A DNA stretch of 20,791 nucleotides from a virus. The notes under the pieces were generated by a model. It did no database searches and was not told the DNA's origin. It saw only the letters and a list, made by a program, of their open reading frames with translations. How positions within the stretch are numbered: position 1 is the stretch's first letter; every line of letters begins with the position of its first letter. This document shows positions 11,082 to 18,820 of the stretch, in pieces. The stretch spans positions 1 to 20,791 of the IMG/VR virus record IMGVR_UViG_3300037264_004672; one strand, written 5' to 3'. The translations under genes were made by a program, and so were the position numbers.

Positions 11082-11987
11082 ATGTCTATGGTTACCAGCG
11101 CAAACAGCAACTACGTCCTCGACGAGGTCGTCACTGCGCTCGTCTTCGAGGCGCTGTACGACTCCACCGAGTTCCTCCTGCCAGAGCTCTACGACGTGCG
11201 CGGGAGCAACTCGCGGCGTGAGCGTCTGGCCTCGACCGGCGCCCTCTCGCGGTACACCGAGAAGCTGCCCGGCGTCTCGGCGGATGAGGACTCGATCAGC
11301 CAACAGTGGGAGAAGGACTTCACCCACAAGGTCTTCGCCAAGCAGATCCCGATCGAGCAAGAGCTCATCGACGACGAGGAGTGGGGCTACGTCGCCGACA
11401 TCTCCCGCCAGATGGGCCAGCTCGCCGGCTACTCGATGGAGGAGGACGCCGCGGCGCCCTTCAACGAGGCGTTCTCGAGCTCCACCTACAAGTCGGAGGA
11501 CGGCCTCTCGATCTGCAACGGCGCGCACCTGAACGCGGCCGGCGGCAACAGCCAGTCCAACAGCGGCACCACGGCGCTCTCGATCACCTCGGTGGGCGCG
11601 ACCCGCACCCTGATGCGCAAGTTTACCAACTCCCGCGCTCTCAAGATGATCGTGCGCCCCGACGAGCTTCACGTCCCGGTCGACCTCGAGGAGACGGCCT
11701 GGGAGATCGTGAACTCGATGGGCCGCACCGGCACCGCGAACAACAACGCGAACATGTACAACGGCATGTTCCGGCTCGTGGTGAACGACTTCTTCACTGA
11801 CGTGAACAACTGGTTCATGGCCGACAGCAAGATGCGCAAGGCGAACCTGCTCTGGTTCATGCGTAAGGCGTTCCAGTCCTTCGGCGACGGCAACCTCTTC
11901 TCCGGCGTGCGCCGCGTTGGCGCTCAGTACCGCGAGTCACACGGCTGCCGCGATTGGCGTTGGATCTACGGCCACGCGGTCTCCTAA
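11082..11987 (+). CDS. Major capsid protein (HK97-type fold expected)
   Basis: A 301-aa protein with an AGGAG (11068-11072) nine bases upstream, suiting high expression. The N-terminal arm is followed by a segment typical of capsid E-loops with aromatic and acidic residues (TEKLPGVSADEDSIS). A helical spine follows (about 105-150), then the central domain with LRxx-type strand ALKMIVRPDELHVPVD near 188-203. It ends with DWRWIYGHAVS, a C-terminal pattern seen in many Mu gpT-like and environmental phage capsid proteins. Gene order after the scaffold and the strong downstream terminator support it. Fold assignment is from family knowledge, not calculation. Confidence 0.85.
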   Translation: MSMVTSANSNYVLDEVVTALVFEALYDSTEFLLPELYDVRGSNSRRERLASTGALSRYTEKLPGVSADEDSISQQWEKDFTHKVFAKQIPIEQELIDDEEWGYVADISRQMGQLAGYSMEEDAAAPFNEAFSSSTYKSEDGLSICNGAHLNAAGGNSQSNSGTTALSITSVGATRTLMRKFTNSRALKMIVRPDELHVPVDLEETAWEIVNSMGRTGTANNNANMYNGMFRLVVNDFFTDVNNWFMADSKMRKANLLWFMRKAFQSFGDGNLFSGVRRVGAQYRESHGCRDWRWIYGHAVS

Positions 11988-12013
11988 GTCGTAGTCCTCT
12001 CCTTGGTCCTTTG

Positions 12014-12060
12014 CCCGCCCTGGGTGCGCTGCTCGGGGTGCCCTCAGGGCGGGTTTTTTT
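12014..12060 (+). terminator. Strong intrinsic terminator after the capsid gene
   Basis: A perfect nine-base stem, CCCGCCCTG (12014-12022) against CAGGGCGGG (12045-12053), with a GC-rich loop that may fold further. Seven T residues follow directly (12054-12060). It is placed 27 bases after the capsid stop, the expected spot for ending or damping the head-gene transcript. It is the only clear terminator in the window. Confidence 0.9.
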
Positions 12061-12093: not shown

Positions 12094-13284
12094 ATGTTGA
12101 ACCGGATCCACTTCCTCTTTCTGGTCTCGCTCCTGGCCGCATGCGCCGAGGGCGATACGAACTTCACCAGCGTCGTCACCTCGGATGACCTGACCGTCGG
12201 CGATGACGCCACCATCGCCGGTGACCTGGTGGTGACCGGGACGCTGACCGCCACCGGCAATGTCCCGGCGGTAGGAGTGCTCACCGGCACCAACGGCGGC
12301 ACCGTCGGCAACGAGACCAATAACGCGTGGGCCATCGCCGAGAACAGCGAGAACCTGATCTGCACCTTCGGCGTGAACCTGGCGACCTGGTCGAGCTCCA
12401 CGGGGGCCACCGTCGCCTTCACCCCAGCGGTGGGCTTCACCGGAGACGCTACATTCAGCGGCGGCGCCGGTGCTATCACAATGTCCGACTCGGCGAGCTC
12501 GGTCGTGCTGCCGGACAACGACACCACAGCGCTCGCCATCGGGTCCACCGACCAGCTCGGCCTGCTCACCTTCGACACCGGCGACGCGACGGAGACCGTC
12601 ATCGTCAACGGCACCACGACCGTGAAGGCCTTCGACGTCGCGGTCGGCACATCGTCATTCGCTGAGACCGTGGCCATGGTGGCCAACGCCACTGTAGGCA
12701 CCACCCTCGGCGTTACCGGGGACGCGACCCTGAGCGGCGGGGCCGGTGCGCTGACCTTCGGCGCCGCCTCATCGAGCGTCCTCGTCACCGACAACAGCAC
12801 CACCGGCCTCGATATCGGCTCCACCGGCACCACCGCCGGCTTGCGCTACGACTCGACCGACAACGCTGAAAACCTTGTGGTCAACAGCGCTGGTATCCGC
12901 GCCGTGGGCGCAGACATCACCGGCACCATCTCCCTCGACGCGTCGGATTGCGGCAAGGCCTTCGCTGTCACGGCCGGCATCGACACCGGCACGATCACAC
13001 TACCCGACGCCGACGCAGCGCGCGGCTGCTACCTGACCTTCTCCTACGTCGGAGCTGATGCCGGCGCCCTGCTCGATATCTCCCCGCTCGACTCCGACGC
13101 CGACGGCATCGAGGGCGGGTTGCGTGCGGTCAACGGCGATCTCACCTACTTCTCTGGCACCGCAGACGCCGACATTGGGCTGACCAAAGCGACCAGCCTC
13201 ACCGGCGACATGATCGCCCTGCACGCCTGCGGCGACGCCATGTGGTGCGTGGTCACGACCATCGGCATCTGGGCGAACAACTAA
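12094..13284 (+). CDS. Large lipoprotein with fibre-like repeats
   Basis: The N-terminus is a textbook lipoprotein signal: basic MLNR, hydrophobic FLFLVSLLAAC and lipobox cysteine C17, followed by an acidic mature start. The mature 380 aa are small-residue rich (G, T, A, D, S), beta-repeat in style. Two related units start at residues 115 and 207 (FTGDATFSGGAGAITM / VTGDATLSGGAGALTF), so there is an internal duplication. The C-terminal 120 residues (DCGKAFAVTAGIDTGTITLPDA) look like domains found in phage fibres. Fibre-like content on a lipid-anchored protein is unusual: it may be a surface adhesin or exclusion protein, or a virion protein that passes through the envelope. GGAG at about 12083 precedes the ATG. 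Confidence 0.8.
   Translation: MLNRIHFLFLVSLLAACAEGDTNFTSVVTSDDLTVGDDATIAGDLVVTGTLTATGNVPAVGVLTGTNGGTVGNETNNAWAIAENSENLICTFGVNLATWSSSTGATVAFTPAVGFTGDATFSGGAGAITMSDSASSVVLPDNDTTALAIGSTDQLGLLTFDTGDATETVIVNGTTTVKAFDVAVGTSSFAETVAMVANATVGTTLGVTGDATLSGGAGALTFGAASSSVLVTDNSTTGLDIGSTGTTAGLRYDSTDNAENLVVNSAGIRAVGADITGTISLDASDCGKAFAVTAGIDTGTITLPDADAARGCYLTFSYVGADAGALLDISPLDSDADGIEGGLRAVNGDLTYFSGTADADIGLTKATSLTGDMIALHACGDAMWCVVTTIGIWANN
12436..12639 (+). repeat. Internal protein repeat, unit 1
   Basis: Codes for residues 115-182 of the lipoprotein. Shares FTGDAT/VTGDAT, SGGAGA, SSVxxxDN and IGST landmarks with unit 2 about 92 residues later. Similarity is clear in protein, weaker in DNA, suggesting an old duplication. 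Confidence 0.6.
12712..12912 (+). repeat. Internal protein repeat, unit 2
   Basis: Codes for residues 207-273 of the lipoprotein, aligned to unit 1 by GDATLSGGAGALTF and DNSTTGLDIGST. Confidence 0.6.
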
Positions 13285-13304
13285 AAGGTCCTGGGAGGTT
13301 GCCC

Positions 13305-13850
13305 GTGCGCAAGCTCATCACCGCATCGCTGTTCGCCCTGGCCCTGCTCGCGCCGTCGCTGGTGCGCGCGCAGACCTCCCGCTACGTCTGGACCGACCTC
13401 GGCTACCTGACCAACTGCGGCACCGCCGCTACCGGCGCGGCAATCAACTCGGCCATCAACTGCGAGATCGGGAGCGCGGCGAACCCGGGCGTCAACTACC
13501 TCAACGGGTTCAACATAGTATCGCTCGAGATCTTCTACGACGACAACGCAGGCGGGGCGAGCACCGGCTACACCTTCACGCTCCAGCAATGCAGCGAAGG
13601 GCTCGGGGCCGGCTCCTGTACCGACTCTGCGGACTGGTCCACCATCGCCGCTGACGCCGTGTCCTCGGGAACGGTGACGCTCACCGCCGCCACCTTCACC
13701 GTGGTGAGCGACGCCGACAGCAAGCTCACCTACTCGCTCGGCATCCATTACAACCGACTGCGCCTCGGCGGCGTCGTCGGCTCGGGTGCCCCTGGCGCCA
13801 CGGACACGATCAGAGTCAAGGCCCGCGTGGGCTACCTGGCTGCGTTCTGA
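13305..13850 (+). CDS. Sec-exported beta-rich protein, 181 aa
   Basis: The GTG start is chosen because GGGAGG (13293-13298) lies six bases upstream and it begins a canonical signal peptide: MRK, then LITASLFALALLAPSL, then a VRA-Q cleavage site near residue 22. The frame is open upstream but that part overlaps the previous gene. The mature part has alternating hydrophobic strands, four scattered cysteines that could form disulphides in the periplasm, and an ending VKARVGYLAAF. No family is recognised. The flanking gene products also carry export signals. Role unknown; possibly a virion or cell-surface partner of its neighbours. Confidence 0.75.
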   Translation: MRKLITASLFALALLAPSLVRAQTSRYVWTDLGYLTNCGTAATGAAINSAINCEIGSAANPGVNYLNGFNIVSLEIFYDDNAGGASTGYTFTLQQCSEGLGAGSCTDSADWSTIAADAVSSGTVTLTAATFTVVSDADSKLTYSLGIHYNRLRLGGVVGSGAPGATDTIRVKARVGYLAAF

Positions 13851-15283
13851 TGCTGCGCACGCTCAAGGCGGCAGGGCTCGCCGTAACGGCGATGGTCTTG
13901 CTCGGGGCCACGAACCCGCGGCAGCCGGGCTTCGTCGGCACCGCCAATGCGGATCTCAACTTCGGCGGCCTCTACGACGTTATCGACCTCCTGATGCTCG
14001 ACTTCTCGCCGCAGACCATCGTGGCGGATGATGCGACGCCGGACGTGTCGGGCGGCTCGTACTTCGTCACCAGCGCCAACACCGGCGCGACGGCCATCAC
14101 GGACCTCGATACGCCCCGCGTCGGCCAGTTCGTGATGCTGTGTGGTGGGAGCAATACCAACAGCACGACCATTGCCGACAGCGGGAACTTCGCCCTCAAC
14201 GGCGCGCTCACCCTCTCGCTCGACGTGTGCGTGATCCTGTTTGCGCAGGCGGACAACGACTACGTGGAGTTCACGAGGAACAATGCCGGCGGCTGGGTTG
14301 GGACGGCGACGAGCGACCTCGATATGGCCGCGTATAACATCACTGGTCTCGGTGCAATCGACACCAACGCGGGCCAGGTCACCATCACGGAAGCCGTTGC
14401 CGCCGCTGGCCTTAACGGCGTGTGTATTGGCGACATCGTTCAGTGTGACGGCGACCGCTCAGTAAACATCGGGTTTGCTATTGATGACAACAACTTTGAT
14501 GAAACGGTGTCCATTGGCGATGCGTCTACTGTTACCGGCGCCGCCGGTATTTCTATCGGAGACGCTGCAACGACAGTAACGGGCATTGCGATTGGAGACG
14601 ATGCGAGCAGTACGTCGGGGGTGGCAGTAGGCGACGGGGCGGTTTCGAGCGGTGCCAATAGTCACAACACCGCAGTTGGCTCCAGCACGAGTGCAACAGC
14701 AACGGCGGCTTGTGTCGCCATTGGGAATGGGGCTGGTTGCAGCGCGACTGACTGCGTTTCTCTGGGCGAAGGGTCTACGTGCACCCAAACGCAGGCTATC
14801 TCGATAGGCAGCGACTCAACCACGGGACAGCCTGGCTGCATCGCCATTGGCGACAATTCTACCACCAGTACATTCACTAAGTGCGTAGCCTTTGGCATCG
14901 GCGCCACCTGTGCCGCCAACAATGACTTTCAGCTAGGCACCTCAACCGATGTGCTCAACCTGAAGAGCTACGGCTTGGTCTCCATTGGCCGTAACGCAAC
15001 CATCACTGTTGACGGGGCGACCACATTCGTCGTCGCATCCGGGTACGCGACTCTTGCCTGCACCGGCGCCGAGACACTCATCACGGCCACGGCCGGCTCG
15101 CTAGGGTCGGTCTTGGTGCTCGCCAGCACGGATACCGAGTGCACGCTGCAGGACGACGACACCCCGGAGGTGAACGAGTTCAATCTCCTCGGCACTGGCG
15201 ACGACACAGGTGCCGCTAACAAGCACCTCACCTTCATTCATGACGGCAGCGCATGGCAGCAGACCGCCGAGTCGGACAACTAA
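13850..15283 (+). CDS. YadA/Hep_Hag-like repeat protein with N-terminal signal
   Basis: Starts on the last base of the preceding stop. The N-terminus (MLRTLKAAGLAVTAMVLLGAT) looks like a signal peptide or anchor. Residues about 60-150 form a fibre-type beta domain. Residues about 204-350 contain some eleven short units of the form xxIGxxA (VNIGFA, VSIGDA, IAIGDD, VAIGNG, ISIGSD, IAIGDN), the collagen-like spacing of YadA/trimeric autotransporter heads, which fold as trimeric beta-rolls. A second beta domain (about 385-470) ends in FIHDGSAWQ. The usual C-terminal membrane anchor of trimeric autotransporters is absent. It is best read as an adhesin or receptor-binding fibre. Codon use in the repeat block is less GC-biased than in neighbours. 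Confidence 0.8.
   Translation: MLRTLKAAGLAVTAMVLLGATNPRQPGFVGTANADLNFGGLYDVIDLLMLDFSPQTIVADDATPDVSGGSYFVTSANTGATAITDLDTPRVGQFVMLCGGSNTNSTTIADSGNFALNGALTLSLDVCVILFAQADNDYVEFTRNNAGGWVGTATSDLDMAAYNITGLGAIDTNAGQVTITEAVAAAGLNGVCIGDIVQCDGDRSVNIGFAIDDNNFDETVSIGDASTVTGAAGISIGDAATTVTGIAIGDDASSTSGVAVGDGAVSSGANSHNTAVGSSTSATATAACVAIGNGAGCSATDCVSLGEGSTCTQTQAISIGSDSTTGQPGCIAIGDNSTTSTFTKCVAFGIGATCAANNDFQLGTSTDVLNLKSYGLVSIGRNATITVDGATTFVVASGYATLACTGAETLITATAGSLGSVLVLASTDTECTLQDDDTPEVNEFNLLGTGDDTGAANKHLTFIHDGSAWQQTAESDN
14459..14899 (+). repeat. YadA-head-like repeat block
   Basis: Degenerate repeats of about 13-18 codons marked by I/V-G dyads. By eye, third-position A and T are commoner than in neighbouring genes (ATT, GTA, TCT, GAT codons), hinting at separate origin. 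Confidence 0.7.
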
Positions 15284-15477
15284 TGCGTCTCGCCCCCCTC
15301 ATCCTCGCGCTCTCGGGCTGCGCCACGTGGGCGCCATCGCCTGAAACGGTCGTGGCGTATCGCGATGCGTGCCGGGGGGCGTTCGCGTTCGGCATCAAGC
15401 AGCCCTACTCCGGCGACGGGTCCCACTTCCACATGCAGTGCATGCCGACATCGGCGCCGGCCGGGTACCGCGAATGA
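15283..15477 (+). CDS. Small lipoprotein, 64 aa (outer spanin candidate)
   Basis: ATG shares its A with the preceding TAA. The signal is MRLAPLILALSGC, with lipobox LSGC and lipidated C13, giving a mature chain of about 50 residues. The mature part has prolines at its start and end and two more cysteines. Small outer-membrane lipoproteins of this size next to lysis genes often act as outer spanins (Rz1-type), which would fuse inner and outer membranes. It is not strongly proline-rich, so that is an inference from context only. It overlaps the next gene by four bases. Confidence 0.7.
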   Translation: MRLAPLILALSGCATWAPSPETVVAYRDACRGAFAFGIKQPYSGDGSHFHMQCMPTSAPAGYRE

Positions 15478-15794
15478 TGCGCCTCGTTGGCTACGTGACT
15501 GCGTTCCTCTTCGGCGGCATGGTTGGCGCTAACTGTCCCGCCCACGCCGCTACCAGCGCCAACGCGCCCGCCGTAGTCACGTTCACTGCGACCATCGTTG
15601 CGCAAGAGCGCCTCGCCATCACCACCCACGACCTCGGCAACGGCGTGTGGTCCATCGTCGGCACGCACAACGACGAGCGGCCGGTAGAGATGCTGGCCAT
15701 GGCCGGCGACTTCGTGGAGTTCGACGCGACGGGTAGCGCGATGGTGGCGGTGCGGCGGTATCAGTGGGCGGGTGAGGCGGTGGCGCTGCGATGA
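15474..15794 (+). CDS. Sec-exported small protein, 106 aa
   Basis: The start is the first of two consecutive ATGs, overlapping the previous stop (ATGA). A signal peptide runs to about residue 25 (LVGYVTAFLFGGMVGA, then CPAHA-A cleavage). The mature part of about 80 residues is beta-rich (VVTFTATIVAQERLAI, GVWSIVGTHNDERPV). No coiled coil is present, so it does not look like an inner spanin. It overlaps the next gene by four bases. Function unknown. Confidence 0.7.
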   Translation: MMRLVGYVTAFLFGGMVGANCPAHAATSANAPAVVTFTATIVAQERLAITTHDLGNGVWSIVGTHNDERPVEMLAMAGDFVEFDATGSAMVAVRRYQWAGEAVALR

Positions 15795-16138
15795 TGCCCC
15801 TCCTCGACATCGTGCTTGCACAGGCTCAAGGCATGCCCCAGACCGGCAACGCCAAGCTCGACGCGCTCATGTACATGGGCGGCGCGGTCCTGAGCTTCAT
15901 GGGCCTCCGCGAAGCCAACTACATCCGCACGCAGATGAAGGCGAAGAAGAACGGCCACAACGGCGAGGGACTCGACCGCATGGGCCACGCCATCGAGAAG
16001 CTTTCGACCGCCATCGAGCGCCTCGCCGACTTCAGCCACGAGCAGCGCCGGGAAGAGCGCCAGGCCCACGGGCGTATCGAGGTCAAGGTCAACGACGTTG
16101 TCGACGAGCTACGCGCCGCCCGGCGCACGGGAGGCTGA
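15791..16138 (+). CDS. Membrane/coiled-coil protein of the lysis region
   Basis: 115 aa. A hydrophobic N-terminal stretch (PLLDIVLAQAQ) and one likely membrane span around residues 26-42 (DALMYMGGAVLSFMG) are followed by a charged helix to the end. Heptad-like LDRMGHAIEKLSTAIERL and a second helical run lie there. The architecture (one span, long cytoplasmic or periplasmic coiled coil) resembles XhlA-type lysis accessories or an inner-membrane spanin. The orientation cannot be fixed. It sits four bases before the holin-like gene. Confidence 0.65.
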   Translation: MMPLLDIVLAQAQGMPQTGNAKLDALMYMGGAVLSFMGLREANYIRTQMKAKKNGHNGEGLDRMGHAIEKLSTAIERLADFSHEQRREERQAHGRIEVKVNDVVDELRAARRTGG

Positions 16139-16141
16139 GTC

Positions 16142-16393
16142 ATGCAGAAGTCCACAGGCAAGTCCGAGATCGCCCTCGCCGCCGGCATCGCGCTCGCGGT
16201 CATCCCCTTGGCGATGGACTACATCCCCAAAGACAGCGCGTGGGTGCCGGTGCTCGGTGCTCTCCTCGCCATCGCCACCTACATCGGCGGGCGCCAGCTT
16301 CGTCTCGGCGCCGAAGCCAAGGCCAACGCAGTGATCGAAGCGGCCAAGGCGGCGCCCTCTGCAAACCCTTCCAAGCCATCGACCTCGGGCTGA
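16142..16393 (+). CDS. Holin-like protein, two membrane spans
   Basis: An 83-aa protein preceded by GGGAGG about eight bases before the ATG. Two hydrophobic segments at about 9-25 (EIALAAGIALAVIPLA) and 34-50 (WVPVLGALLAIATYIGG) are separated by a short charged turn (DYIPKDSA). A hydrophilic, positively charged C-terminal tail follows. This is the class II holin plan, and the amidase follows about 1.1 kb later. A holin would make the inner-membrane lesion that releases or activates the endolysin. No sequence homology is claimed. Confidence 0.7.
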   Translation: MQKSTGKSEIALAAGIALAVIPLAMDYIPKDSAWVPVLGALLAIATYIGGRQLRLGAEAKANAVIEAAKAAPSANPSKPSTSG

Positions 16394-16410: not shown

Positions 16411-16593
16411 ATGCCCGGTGGCGGTGGCTTGGACCTCGGTATCTTCGCCAACCGCGAGAGCGCGGTGGCGCGTGCTGAGTACCTCCACCGCGTGAACAAG
16501 GCGTGGGCGCTGTACGGGGCGGGGCAGGTTGAGACGTCGGCGGCGGGTGGGCTCGATTGGTCGGCGGTGGCCGGTGTCAGGGGGCGATGGTGA
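16411..16593 (+). CDS. Hypothetical small protein, 60 aa
   Basis: ATG 17 bases after the holin stop with no strong Shine-Dalgarno. The frame is open further upstream but that part overlaps the holin. The peptide begins with a Gly-rich stretch, then a helix (NRESAVARAEYLHRVNKAW). It then has a strand pair (ALYGAGQVE, DWSAVAGVRGRW) ending in an aromatic residue, reminiscent of a short amphipathic beta segment. No family is known to me. The stop overlaps the start of the peptidase-like gene. Confidence 0.5.
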   Translation: MPGGGGLDLGIFANRESAVARAEYLHRVNKAWALYGAGQVETSAAGGLDWSAVAGVRGRW

Positions 16594-17405
16594 GCACGAT
16601 CATCAGCGAACTCAGGGTCAGGCGCGAGCTCCGGGAGTCGGGCGCGCGCCTGGTCCCCAAGGACAACGACATCCTCATGTGGATGATCGGGTTCATCCTC
16701 CCCGATCCGTTCATGACTCGGTTTTGGACCACCTACCGCCTGCCGTTCATGCGCGCCCGGATCTGCTATCCGCCCTCAGTTCGCTACCCCGGAGATCATT
16801 GGGGCATCATCGACCACGAGCTTGTCCACGTGAAACAGTTCGCGCCGCCGTGGGGACCTCTGTGGGTGCTCATTCTCGCGACGCTGTTGCCCCTTCCTGC
16901 TCTTTTCAGCGGCCGGTGGTACATCGAGCGCCGAGCGTACCTGAAAGACATCCTAGCGGGCCGCAGGACTATCGACGACTGCGTGCGCACGCTTTGGGCC
17001 GGCTACGGGATGCCGTGGCCGAAGTCGTGGATGAAGGCGTGGTTCACCCGTGAGGTCGACCTTGCTGGCGCTCCTCCTCGGCGTGCTCACCTGGATCGTG
17101 CTCGGGATCGCCGTCCTCCTCCGGAGGCTCATCCGATGAAGAGCCTCGTGTTCTTCATCGTGAGCGGTTGCGGCCACATCCCGGGCACCGACGTAGCGAT
17201 ACCGCCGGAGTGGCACAACGGCGGCCGGCTCGCCGCCTGCTACCCGAACGAGGGGCGGCACAAGGCGATCTGCCTCTACGCGGGCCCCGCGTCGCTCGTG
17301 GCCTGGTGCACGTTCGACGGAGGCCGGCGCTGGGAGGCCTGCAAGAACGAGGACGTGATGCCGTCGGCACAGCACCCGGGGCACGACACCGGTGGGTCGA
17401 TATGA
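16587..17405 (+). CDS. Putative zinc metallopeptidase (HELVH), frame lacks own stop
   Basis: The start is ATG 16587 (a GTG directly follows), overlapping the previous stop. The recognisable protein is residues 1 to about 155. It has a helical start, then HELVHVKQF with the HExxH zinc motif (H77, E78, H81). A hydrophobic span (about 91-108) follows, then a helix IERRAYLKDI whose E114 could be the third ligand. Such HExxH proteins occur in phages without known substrate. After WFTREV near 17057 the frame carries 29 codons that look like an out-of-frame shadow of a membrane ORF. It then enters the lipoprotein gene at 17136, ending at 17405. Either a stop was lost, a frameshift occurred, or the fusion is genuine. 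Confidence 0.6.
   Translation: MVSTIISELRVRRELRESGARLVPKDNDILMWMIGFILPDPFMTRFWTTYRLPFMRARICYPPSVRYPGDHWGIIDHELVHVKQFAPPWGPLWVLILATLLPLPALFSGRWYIERRAYLKDILAGRRTIDDCVRTLWAGYGMPWPKSWMKAWFTREVDLAGAPPRRAHLDRARDRRPPPEAHPMKSLVFFIVSGCGHIPGTDVAIPPEWHNGGRLAACYPNEGRHKAICLYAGPASLVAWCTFDGGRRWEACKNEDVMPSAQHPGHDTGGSI
17050..17139 (+). CDS. Micro-ORF, 29-aa membrane peptide nested in +1 frame
   Basis: GTG at 17050 with a hydrophobic product: RSTLLALLLGVLTWIVLG then basic RRLIR, a clear single span. Its TGA overlaps the ATG of the lipoprotein gene (ATGA). A TGA at 17051-17053 would form a GTGA overlap if the upstream peptidase ended there, but the peptidase is not in that frame. It could be a separate peptide or the natural C-terminal anchor of the peptidase after a frameshift. 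Confidence 0.4.
   Translation: MRSTLLALLLGVLTWIVLGIAVLLRRLIR
17123..17127 (+). promoter_or_regulatory. Perfect Shine-Dalgarno inside the fused frame
   Basis: GGAGG with eight bases to ATG 17136. It argues that the lipoprotein is initiated independently rather than made only as the tail of the 272-codon frame. Confidence 0.7.
17136..17405 (+). CDS. Small lipoprotein, 89 aa (internal start)
   Basis: The product begins MKSLVFFIVSGC, with lipobox VSGC and C12 as the lipidated cysteine; the hydrophobic region is short. The mature chain has four cysteines (C35, C47, C58, C69) suited to periplasmic disulphides. It has no spanin-like proline richness. It shares the peptidase frame but has its own strong Shine-Dalgarno and an ATGA overlap with the micro-ORF stop. 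Could be an outer-membrane lysis accessory; this is inference from place. Confidence 0.55.
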   Translation: MKSLVFFIVSGCGHIPGTDVAIPPEWHNGGRLAACYPNEGRHKAICLYAGPASLVAWCTFDGGRRWEACKNEDVMPSAQHPGHDTGGSI

Positions 17406-17506: not shown

Positions 17507-18210
17507 CCCGCCCGATCATCTTCATCGACCCGGGTCACGGCGGCAGCAAGCTCGGGATCACGCACCCGCCCATGCCGACATCTACGGGCGGCAGCCCAGA
17601 AGAGTTGAACGCCCACGCGCTGGCCATGGGGGCATGGCGGCGGGTGGCCCTGTGCGAGAAGGACATCGCCCTGGACCTCGGGCTCGAGCTCCGCCACGCC
17701 ATCAAGCAACTCGAGTGGCCCGTCATCGTCGAGATGACCCGCGAGGTCGATGTCGAAGTAGCGAACAGCACCCGCGGCGACATGGCGCGCGGCCTATGCT
17801 CCTCGCTGGTGCTCTCCATCCACGCGAACGGCCACACCAACCCGGCCTACTCCGGCATGATCACCTTCGGCCGCGTGAACGACGAGCTCGGGTGCTCGGT
17901 GGCGCGCACCATCACCTCGAACGCCCCGGCAGCCTTCAGGCGCCACGGTAACGCCTTCTTCTCGTGCGACCCCCTGAGGGTGGCGACCGACGAGGCGCAC
18001 AAATGGCTGGTCGACGCGAGCGCGGTGGTGCACCGCTTCAAGCCGATCCCCACCGCGCTCGTCGAGGTCTTCCACATGACCAACGACGACGATCGGGCGG
18101 AGATCAGCAACCAGGCCATCCGCAAAGGCGTCATCAACTCGCTGCTCCTCGGTGTCGAGCACGGGCTCGTGATGATGGGCCTCGGAAGTCCGTGGGTGAC
18201 CCATGGCTAG
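17503..18210 (+). CDS. Endolysin, N-acetylmuramoyl-L-alanine amidase (Amidase_3)
   Basis: Zinc amidase that cleaves the bond between muramic acid and L-alanine in peptidoglycan. The true start is ATG 17503, overlapping the previous stop; the upstream open frame is shadow. The motifs of the AmiC/CwlV family are in order: IDPGHGG with H12, CEKDIALDLG with E52, SIHANG with H107 and a final VEVFHMTN with E188. These match the zinc ligands and catalytic glutamate. It is 235 aa, a single catalytic domain without obvious cell-wall-binding repeats or signal peptide. Release therefore likely depends on the holin-like protein at 16142-16393. Confidence 0.92.
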   Translation: MTRPIIFIDPGHGGSKLGITHPPMPTSTGGSPEELNAHALAMGAWRRVALCEKDIALDLGLELRHAIKQLEWPVIVEMTREVDVEVANSTRGDMARGLCSSLVLSIHANGHTNPAYSGMITFGRVNDELGCSVARTITSNAPAAFRRHGNAFFSCDPLRVATDEAHKWLVDASAVVHRFKPIPTALVEVFHMTNDDDRAEISNQAIRKGVINSLLLGVEHGLVMMGLGSPWVTHG

Positions 18211-18820
18211 GGTCGATTCCACCGGCAAGATCGACTGGCTCGTCTCAAAGCCGCTGGCGCAGCCGATCGCCTGCGACTCGTTCACCATCGGCGATGGGCA
18301 GTACGGCAGGCTGTGGGAGAGGATGACTCTCGCCGGCACGAACCGCATGACCACCAACGGCAGCGGGCGCTTGGTGATCGATGGGGCGGCCATCCCCGCG
18401 ACCGGTAGCGGGTTCTACGCCACGCGATTGGCTGGCACGGTCACTATGACAAACCTCCTGTACACAACGGTCACTTTCGACACCGAGATGTACGACTCGG
18501 ATGGGTGTTGGGACGGGACAACGTACGTCGCACCAGGCGCCGGGCTCTACATGTTCACGGGCCGAGCAGGCGTCGACAACATCGACGATGCCGAGCGTGT
18601 TGACGTCGCACTGTATGTCAACAACGAAGTCCGCGCTTACGCCATGCATGGCTTTGCGGTGACGACCGCCAACCAGAACATCTACGGATCAATCGCCGCG
18701 GTCCTCTATCTGTCGGGCGGTGACGCCGTGACCCTGCGACTGCGTCAGGCCGAGGGTGCCGACCAGAGCCTTAACGTCGGGCTGGCTCACTGCTGGTTTT
18801 CGTGCGCGAGGTTCCGGTAA
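18203..18820 (+). CDS. C1q/TNF-like jelly-roll protein, probable receptor binding
   Basis: A 205-aa protein overlapping the amidase by eight bases. After an N-terminal region of about 70 residues, a beta-rich domain runs to the C-terminus. It contains FYATRLAGTVTM, AGLYMFTGRAGV, RVDVALYVNNEVR and VLYLSGGDAVTLRLRQ, the order of strands and the YxF turn seen in C1q-like domains of phage tip proteins. Such domains trimerise and bind host surface. No signal peptide is present, unlike the adhesin-like genes upstream. Fold is inferred by eye. Confidence 0.65.
   Translation: MARVDSTGKIDWLVSKPLAQPIACDSFTIGDGQYGRLWERMTLAGTNRMTTNGSGRLVIDGAAIPATGSGFYATRLAGTVTMTNLLYTTVTFDTEMYDSDGCWDGTTYVAPGAGLYMFTGRAGVDNIDDAERVDVALYVNNEVRAYAMHGFAVTTANQNIYGSIAAVLYLSGGDAVTLRLRQAEGADQSLNVGLAHCWFSCARFR

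What the first reader, a model, noticed from the sequence alone, without database searches (positions are those of the whole stretch)
12094..15794. Five consecutive exported, adhesin-like proteins between capsid gene and lysis genes
Seen: genes at 12094, 13305, 13850, 15283 and 15474 all start with an export signal. Two have lipoboxes (LLAAC, LSGC); two have clear Sec signals (VRA-Q, AHA-A); the third in order (13850) has a signal-like hydrophobic start. Two have fibre- or YadA-like contents. Known: phage virion fibres normally assemble in the cytoplasm and lack signal peptides. Inference: this may be a phage-encoded cell-surface module made during infection (adhesion, receptor masking or superinfection exclusion), or a virion appendage assembled across the envelope. 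A strong terminator just upstream suggests separate expression.
Basis: partly seen in the sequence, partly recalled or inferred. Interest (0 to 1): 0.75.

Follow-up and report, generated by a model that had tools for sequence, protein, structure and literature searches.

The report
Phage fibre genes carrying export signals
An uncultured tailed phage carries, between its capsid and lysis genes, fibre-like surface proteins that start with genuine-looking export signals, and the same oddity recurs in about ten unrelated uncultured phages, which suggests that some phages send fibre or spike proteins into the host envelope instead of keeping them in the cytoplasm where virions are built.

Summary
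Genes 12094, 13305, 13850, 15283 and 15474 all begin with Sec-type signals, two with consensus lipoboxes. Background is about 3-4% in phage genes and 2% in spurious ORFs of the same DNA. The upstream terminator is real. The five are probably not one module: the first three are fibre-like, while 15283 (o-spanin-like lipoprotein) and 15474 fit the adjoining lysis cassette.

Gene 13850 encodes a signal peptide, a beta-sandwich domain 'D', a YadA-head-like beta-roll and a C-terminal beta domain. It has no YadA membrane anchor, so it is not an autotransporter. D is a virus domain: Bacteroidota phages fuse it to their major capsid protein. Searching with D gave 10 further independent uncultured phages whose multi-domain D-fibres also have signal peptides (11 of 13 with the window; tailspike control about 6%, p about 6e-9), beside unrelated capsid genes or in tail modules.

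Sec-exported fibres and tailspikes are thus a recurrent, polyphyletic minority trait. I found no description of it in the papers searched. Best reading: they act in the host envelope in late infection (receptor masking or trimming). Joining virions at lysis is not excluded. Export and function remain untested.

The parts
11082..11987 (+). Major capsid protein, Mu gpT-like; upstream neighbour of the exported genes
   Evidence: Pfam PF25209 E=9e-11 and PF10124 8.5e-9; tblastn to gpT-type phage capsids
12013..12054 (+). Intrinsic terminator directly after the capsid gene, followed by a T run
   Evidence: fold -34.5 kcal/mol, z -3.7; also listed by the scan
12094..13284 (+). Lipoprotein with fibre-like beta-repeat content (396 aa); signal 12094-12141, lipid Cys at residue 17 (LAA|C), +2 residue Ala
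   Evidence: sequence, rule call; no Pfam, PHROG, NCBIfam or PDB match; single-sequence model too poor to use
13305..13850 (+). Small exported beta-rich protein (181 aa); signal peptide 13305-13370 (VRA|Q)
   Evidence: sequence and GGGAGG ribosome site, rule call; no relatives found
13850..15283 (+). Exported multi-domain fibre-like protein (477 aa); signal peptide 13850-13909
   Evidence: relatives with signal peptides
14015..14281 (+). Domain D (residues 56-144), beta-sandwich also fused to the C-terminus of Bacteroidota phage major capsid proteins
   Evidence: tblastn, HMM, AlphaFold2 pLDDT about 97, Foldseek to CBA120 TSP4, T4 gp10 and Pa223 capsid spike, E 0.02 to 0.5
14501..14899 (+). 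YadA-head/Hep_Hag-like beta-roll (residues 218-350, period about 14); third-position GC falls from 0.90 to about 0.5-0.64 here, so probably a recently exchanged cassette
   Evidence: PDB 3s6l E=7.4e-5, 1p9h 0.022; GC3 profile and repeat positions
15062..15259 (+). C-terminal beta-sandwich (residues 405-470), weakly like Phage_depo_C (below the gathering score)
   Evidence: PF25692 E=0.0012, 19.6 bits against a cut-off of 25
15283..15477 (+). Small lipoprotein (64 aa, LSG|C), o-spanin-like; probably part of the lysis cassette
   Evidence: lipobox and 2 further Cys; spanin features in PMC6139136
15474..15794 (+). Small exported protein (106 aa), AHA|A site; translationally coupled to 15283
15791..16393 (+). 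Two small membrane proteins (15791-16138 and 16142-16393), holin-like by hydropathy; start of the lysis genes
   Evidence: hydropathy and sequence; no family match
17136..17405 (+). Further lipoprotein (VSG|C) inside the lysis region
17536..18210 (+). N-acetylmuramoyl-L-alanine amidase (endolysin)
   Evidence: PF01520 E=7.6e-21
18203..18820 (+). C1q-domain fibre protein without a signal: in-window contrast to the exported fibres
   Evidence: PF00386 E=2.3e-5; no signal

Best explanation
The phage makes virion-type fibre proteins (12094, 13305, 13850) that carry Sec signals and are sent out of the cytoplasm late in infection. Shown by sequence: the signals, the YadA-like and D-domain content of 13850, the position between capsid and lysis genes, and the same combination of signal and D-fibre in about ten other unrelated phages. 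Inferred: Sec moves the unfolded chains to the periplasm; signal peptidase I releases 13305 and 13850; signal peptidase II and lipidation anchor 12094, probably in the outer membrane (Ala at +2); the fibres fold there and bind or modify the host's own envelope glycans or receptors until holin, amidase and spanin open the cell. The most likely benefit is masking or trimming receptors, which limits superinfection and loss of progeny on cell debris. Genes 15283 and 15474 more likely serve lysis.
For: Signals in five consecutive genes, far above background, with lipoboxes that a mere virion-docking helix would not need. Domain D marks virus surface proteins: tandem copies end Bacteroidota phage capsid proteins. 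Multi-domain D-fibres have signal peptides in 11 of 13 independent cases including the window (9 by rule, L011 and L206 by eye), against about 5 of 79 pectate-lyase tailspikes, p about 6e-9. True phage context around them: major capsid genes of phrog_1005, phrog_9953 and phrog_3437 adjacent or one to two genes away in L016, L025, L111 and L112, tape measure or tail genes in L014 and L086. In L112 the signal is followed almost at once by the pectate-lyase domain, leaving no room for a virion-anchor domain. In the T7-like vir555 the gp17-type tail protein is followed by three SP-bearing fibre-like proteins. Precedent for an exported tailspike fold acting on exopolysaccharide: bacterial WceF (PMC7949094). 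Fibres without signals (18203 with a C1q domain, and 18802) exist in the same window, so export is selective.
Against: No experiment or SignalP run; all calls are rule-based or by eye. Export has not been shown, and no outer-membrane translocator accompanies the proteins, so surface display is unproven. Domain D proteins adjacent to capsid genes without signals (L012, L204, L207, L210, L211) suggest a capsid role for D. Hydrophobic N-termini of Bacteroidota capsid proteins also trip the rules. No close relative of this phage was found, so conservation of the exact five-gene arrangement could not be tested.
Confidence: 0.5

Rival explanations
1. Exported virion appendages: the fibres are translocated, fold in the periplasm, and bind the capsid or tail of progeny when the cell opens at lysis, an extracytoplasmic last step of virion maturation.
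For: D is fused to major capsid proteins in Bacteroidota phages and also found alone beside capsid or prohead genes; SP-bearing D-fibres sit next to major capsid genes in L016, L025 and L198 as in the window; the D model resembles virion parts: CBA120 TSP4, T4 gp10, Pa223 capsid spike (E 0.02 to 0.5).
Against: Head assembly is cytoplasmic; a lipid anchor on 12094 would hold it in a membrane; in L011, L013, L014 and L016 D is the distal C-terminal domain of the fibre, not the attachment end; Foldseek PDB hits are above E 0.001.
Confidence: 0.27
2. The hydrophobic N-termini are not used as signals; they are virion-docking or oligomerisation helices of ordinary head or tail fibres made in the cytoplasm.
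For: Hydrophobic N-termini occur on Bacteroidota phage capsid proteins and are flagged by the same rules; signal rules are not proof.
Against: Two consensus lipoboxes and AxA sites with basic n-regions in unrelated sequences; multi-domain D-fibres and some tailspikes converge on signal-like N-termini with no shared docking sequence.
Confidence: 0.1
3. Lysogenic-conversion morons: prophage-expressed surface adhesins that alter the host cell, similar in role to Lom or Bor of lambda.
For: Terminator upstream; exported; composition break inside 13850 shows exchange.
Against: Genes lie on the late strand between capsid and lysis genes; no promoter-like site; the genome-contig scan with domain D (one pattern) returned only Bacteroidota-type MAG contigs, no SP-type D-fibre; no integrase seen, though the contig is a fragment.
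Confidence: 0.08
4. The whole cluster is an extended lysis or envelope-disruption cassette rather than fibres.
For: 15283, 15474 and 17136 are small exported or lipoproteins among holin-like, metallopeptidase-like and amidase genes; L147 has a comparable order.
Against: 12094 and 13850 are large beta-repeat proteins, and 13850 has YadA-like and D domains.
Confidence: 0.05

Closest known systems
Phage tail fibres and tailspikes (PF12708 tailspikes, T4 gp10/TSP4-type modules)
   Same: Beta-rich multi-domain proteins encoded in the structural region; related phages have the SP fused to PF12708 tailspikes; D folds like TSP4/gp10 modules
   Different: Normal members lack signal peptides (about 94% of 79 in the control); here the N-terminus is a signal, and the genes lie beside the capsid gene, not after the tape measure
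Major-capsid-protein C-terminal D domains of Bacteroidota phages (Ingeline, BT-TP2, Porphyromonas phages)
   Same: Domain D, about 30-50% identical, on the virus surface protein next to or in the capsid gene
   Different: There it is part of the cytoplasmically assembled capsid; here it is on a separate exported protein
YadA-type trimeric autotransporter adhesins
   Same: Signal peptide and YadA-head-like repeats (PDB 3s6l, 1p9h)
   Different: No YadA membrane anchor found; ends in a beta-sandwich instead
Phage lipoproteins of superinfection exclusion (T5 Llp type) and Lom/Bor morons
   Same: Phage-encoded envelope protein, lipobox in 12094 (from general knowledge of those proteins)
   Different: Those are small or barrel proteins; 12094 is a 380-residue fibre-like repeat protein in a structural operon
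WceF of Pantoea stewartii (exported tailspike-fold enzyme)
   Same: Tailspike-like fold behind a cleavable export signal, acts on exopolysaccharide (PMC7949094)
   Different: Bacterial gene, Tat signal, in an EPS cluster; not phage-encoded
Two-component o-spanins
   Same: 15283: short lipoprotein, consensus lipobox, two further Cys, beside holin-like genes (PMC6139136)
   Different: No i-spanin identified; no sequence match

Membership tests
Trimeric autotransporter adhesin (YadA type), gene 13850 | YadA-head-like beta-roll repeats | tested here: met
   PDB 3s6l E=7.4e-5 over residues 218-350; nine motifs of period about 14
Trimeric autotransporter adhesin (YadA type), gene 13850 | C-terminal YadA membrane-anchor beta-barrel | tested here: not met
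   No Pfam anchor hit; C-terminus resembles Phage_depo_C weakly
Conventional phage tail fibre/tailspike, genes 12094-13850 | No export signal; made and assembled in the cytoplasm | tested here: not met
   Signals in all three, against about 6% in 79 tailspikes
Conventional phage tail fibre/tailspike, genes 12094-13850 | Virion component | not testable with these tools
   Needs virion mass spectrometry
Phage superinfection-exclusion lipoprotein, gene 12094 | Signal peptidase II signal with lipobox | tested here: met
   SLLAA|C, fits [LVI][ASTVI][GAS]C (PMC6139136)
Phage superinfection-exclusion lipoprotein, gene 12094 | Blocks receptor or adsorption | not testable with these tools
   No PADLOC or family match
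Two-component o-spanin, gene 15283 | Short lipoprotein with lipobox, beside lysis genes | tested here: met
   64 aa, LSG|C, upstream of holin-like genes
Two-component o-spanin, gene 15283 | Partner i-spanin, adjacent or overlapping | tested here: inconclusive
   Following genes have no spanin match; 15791 has basic residues after its TM, which argues against i-spanin topology
Lysogenic-conversion moron | Own promoter and terminator, composition unlike neighbours | tested here: not met
   No promoter-like site; GC3 of 12094 and 13305 like neighbours, only the middle of 13850 deviates

The most novel reading that the evidence does not exclude
A minority of tailed phages across several capsid lineages export their fibres or tailspikes through Sec and complete the particle, or arm it, only outside the cytoplasm when the cell lyses: an extracytoplasmic maturation step not known for tailed phages.
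Probability: 0.22. Interest if true: 0.88.

Novelty: new variant of a known kind. Interest (0 to 1): 0.58.

Why it matters
Fibres and tailspikes decide what a phage binds, and textbook assembly keeps them in the cytoplasm. A recurrent class with Sec or lipoprotein signals, in phages with unrelated capsids, means either that phages deploy their receptor-binding proteins against the host envelope (masking or trimming receptors, preventing re-adsorption to debris) or that tailed virions can be finished outside the cytoplasm. Both can be tested directly. It also warns annotators that a signal peptide does not make a metagenomic fibre-like gene bacterial.

Tried and rejected
Close relatives of this phage: pattern scans of viral contigs with portal, terminase, capsid, 12094 and 13850 single sequences found none; a capsid alignment was not conserved enough to search with. 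tblastn of 12094 and 13305 in phage records: nothing. Other SP-fibres as tblastn queries in isolated phages gave mostly signal-less proteins or nothing, apart from vir555. Genome-contig scan with D: only three Bacteroidota MAG contigs. Cysteine content as an independent sign of export: not diagnostic, dropped. AlphaFold2 of 12094 without relatives: pLDDT 40, unusable. L138, L122 and L163 were called SP by rule but judged doubtful or false by eye. L201 (no basic residue in the n-region) was left out of the counts. Diversity-generating target and defence-system readings: no PADLOC match. YadA autotransporter reading: rejected for lack of the anchor.

Full report
WHAT THE WINDOW IS. The window is a 20,791-base linear virus record, GC 65%, a fragment of a tailed phage. 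Gene order: methyltransferase 1073 (phrog_359), terminase large subunit 2588 (phrog_2 and PF03237), portal-sized protein 4602, head genes, gpT-like major capsid 11082, the five genes in question, holin-like genes, a metallopeptidase-like membrane protein, a lipoprotein, an amidase 17536, and then C1q-type and other fibre proteins. No close relative was found in viral contigs or phage records.

All five N-termini carry a basic n-region, an uncharged hydrophobic core and a cleavage site or lipobox. With the same rules, 9 of 216 annotated genes of reference phage loci are called, three of which belong to another phage of this kind, and 3 of 140 spurious ORFs in the window. A run of five is unexpected by any of these rates (shuffle p = 0.0006, rate-based expectation below 4e-6). 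The terminator at 12013-12054 is strong. No sigma-70-like promoter follows it. A terminator after a capsid gene is ordinary in phages (T7, from general knowledge), so it does not prove separate expression.

NOT ONE MODULE. 12094, 13305 and 13850 are large or beta-rich. 15283 is a 64-residue lipoprotein with a consensus lipobox and two more cysteines; of 526 two-component spanins tabulated in PMC6139136, 240 o-spanins had two cysteines. 15474 is a small exported protein coupled to it, and both precede holin-like genes. They are better read as the start of the lysis cassette. Contig L147, unrelated in GC, has the order SP tailspike, small SP protein, TM/weakly Rz-like protein, lipoprotein; the protein I take for its capsid had no family match.

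ANATOMY OF 13850. After the signal come domain D (residues 56-144), YadA-head-like repeats (218-350; PDB 3s6l E = 7e-5) and a C-terminal beta-sandwich weakly like Phage_depo_C. There is no YadA anchor, so it is not an autotransporter. Third-position GC falls from 0.90 to 0.5-0.64 across the repeats only, the mark of an exchanged central cassette. AlphaFold2 gives D at pLDDT about 97, with the rest poor. Foldseek places D nearest to virion parts: CBA120 TSP4, an Acinetobacter phage depolymerase, T4 gp10 and the Pa223 capsid spike, at E 0.02 to 0.5, so this is a lead and not a proof; six BFVD virus models reach E < 0.001.

DOMAIN D IS A VIRUS SURFACE DOMAIN. In Cellulophaga, Bacteroides and Porphyromonas phages it ends the major capsid protein, often in tandem, and in many Bacteroidota phages recurs in the next structural gene. 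The scan of GTDB genome contigs with D (one pattern) found only three Bacteroidota MAG contigs.

THE TRAIT IS RECURRENT. Two D scans of viral contigs gave multi-domain D-fibres in 12 further independent phages that could be judged. Ten begin with signal peptides: L011, L013, L014, L016, L025, L086, L193, L198, L203 and L206 (L011 and L206 by eye, because a single Asn breaks the rule's core window). Two lack one (L204, L205); L201 is ambiguous and left out. Bare 116-139 aa D proteins (L012, L207, L210, L211), most of them beside head genes, have no signal. As a control, 79 pectate-lyase tailspikes from the same collection include 7 called and about 5 convincing signals. With the window the contrast is 11 of 13 against 5 of 79 (Fisher p about 6e-9). 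The tailspike exceptions are themselves of the same kind: L112 has a phrog_3437 capsid, one intervening gene, then two SP genes including a tailspike whose PF12708 domain starts about 14 residues after the signal; L111 has three consecutive SP genes, one intervening gene, then a phrog_9953 capsid. L016 and L025 have phrog_1005 capsids next to the SP-fibre, L014 follows tail genes including a tape measure protein, L086 precedes a tail assembly protein. The L198 capsid is 38% identical to that of L016. The T7-like phage vir555 carries three SP-bearing proteins after its gp17-type tail protein. The trait is therefore not tied to one capsid lineage.

HOW IT MOST LIKELY WORKS. Shown by sequence: signals, domain content, gene position and recurrence. 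Inferred: Sec export, cleavage or lipidation, folding in the periplasm. Most likely function (0.5): the fibres act on the host's own envelope late in infection, masking or trimming receptors so that neither rival phages nor newly released progeny are trapped. In favour: a lipid anchor on one, no virion-anchor domain in L112, and the exported tailspike-fold enzyme WceF as a functional precedent (PMC7949094). The main rival (0.27) is that they join virions at lysis; in favour are D's place on capsids and the capsid-adjacent genes. Unused signals (0.1), morons (0.08) and a pure lysis role (0.05) are less likely.

NOVELTY. Six of the eight literature searches looked for signal peptides on tail fibres, tailspikes, head fibres or virion proteins and found, in titles, abstracts and the passages read, no description of Sec-exported fibres in tailed phages; the library is partial and most hits were not read in full. 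One paper states the opposite rule for DGR fibres: phage DGR proteins lack the signal peptides of bacterial ones (PMC6199706). I rate this a new variant of a known kind: phage fibres, and phage exported proteins, combined.

LIMITS. Signal calls are rule-based, not SignalP; start codons were taken from the DNA; most comparison contigs are uncultured fragments called with a simple gene finder; hosts are unknown; no virion or fractionation data were found for any of them.

Noticed in passing
window 14300-14950: Third-position GC drops from 0.90 to 0.5-0.64 only across the YadA-like repeats of gene 13850, flanked by normal values: a recently exchanged central cassette.
   Followed up: partly
window 16590-17138: Membrane-associated HExxH (HELVH) putative metallopeptidase in the lysis region, no Pfam, PHROG or NCBIfam match.
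   Followed up: partly
window 17050-17139: A 29-codon frame, VRSTLLALLLGVLTWIVLGIAVLLRRLIR, a possible tiny membrane protein overlapping the end of the metallopeptidase-like gene.
   Followed up: no
window 16411-16593: 60-residue protein ending ...WSAVAGVRGRW, resembling the last strands of an outer-membrane barrel; no match sought beyond sequence.
   Followed up: no
window 17136-17405: A third lipoprotein (VSGC, several further cysteines) in the lysis region.
   Followed up: partly
BK063671.1 (vir555), 38140-43157: T7-like virus labelled with host Methanomicrobiales carries SP-bearing fibre-like proteins after its gp17-type tail protein; the host label looks doubtful for a T7-like phage.
   Followed up: partly
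L005:4099-6258 (Cellulophaga phage Ingeline_1, QQV89987.1): Annotated 'hypothetical protein' but appears to be the major capsid protein with two C-terminal D domains; the preceding S49 peptidase carries the capsid label.
   Followed up: partly
L017-L068, Bacteroidota phage major capsid proteins: Conserved hydrophobic N-terminus (for example MKKWFLQALPLVAALMGFKEDGKEKL) that mimics a signal peptide on a capsid protein; function unknown.
   Followed up: no
L002, L003, L004, L008, L010 against window: Related gpT-capsid phages encode a GroES co-chaperonin between portal and capsid; no such gene was recognised in the window.
   Followed up: no
L013 (G002), genes 4825, 8258, 8951, 11664: One uncultured phage with four SP-bearing fibre/tailspike proteins in one region, the richest case seen.
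   Followed up: partly
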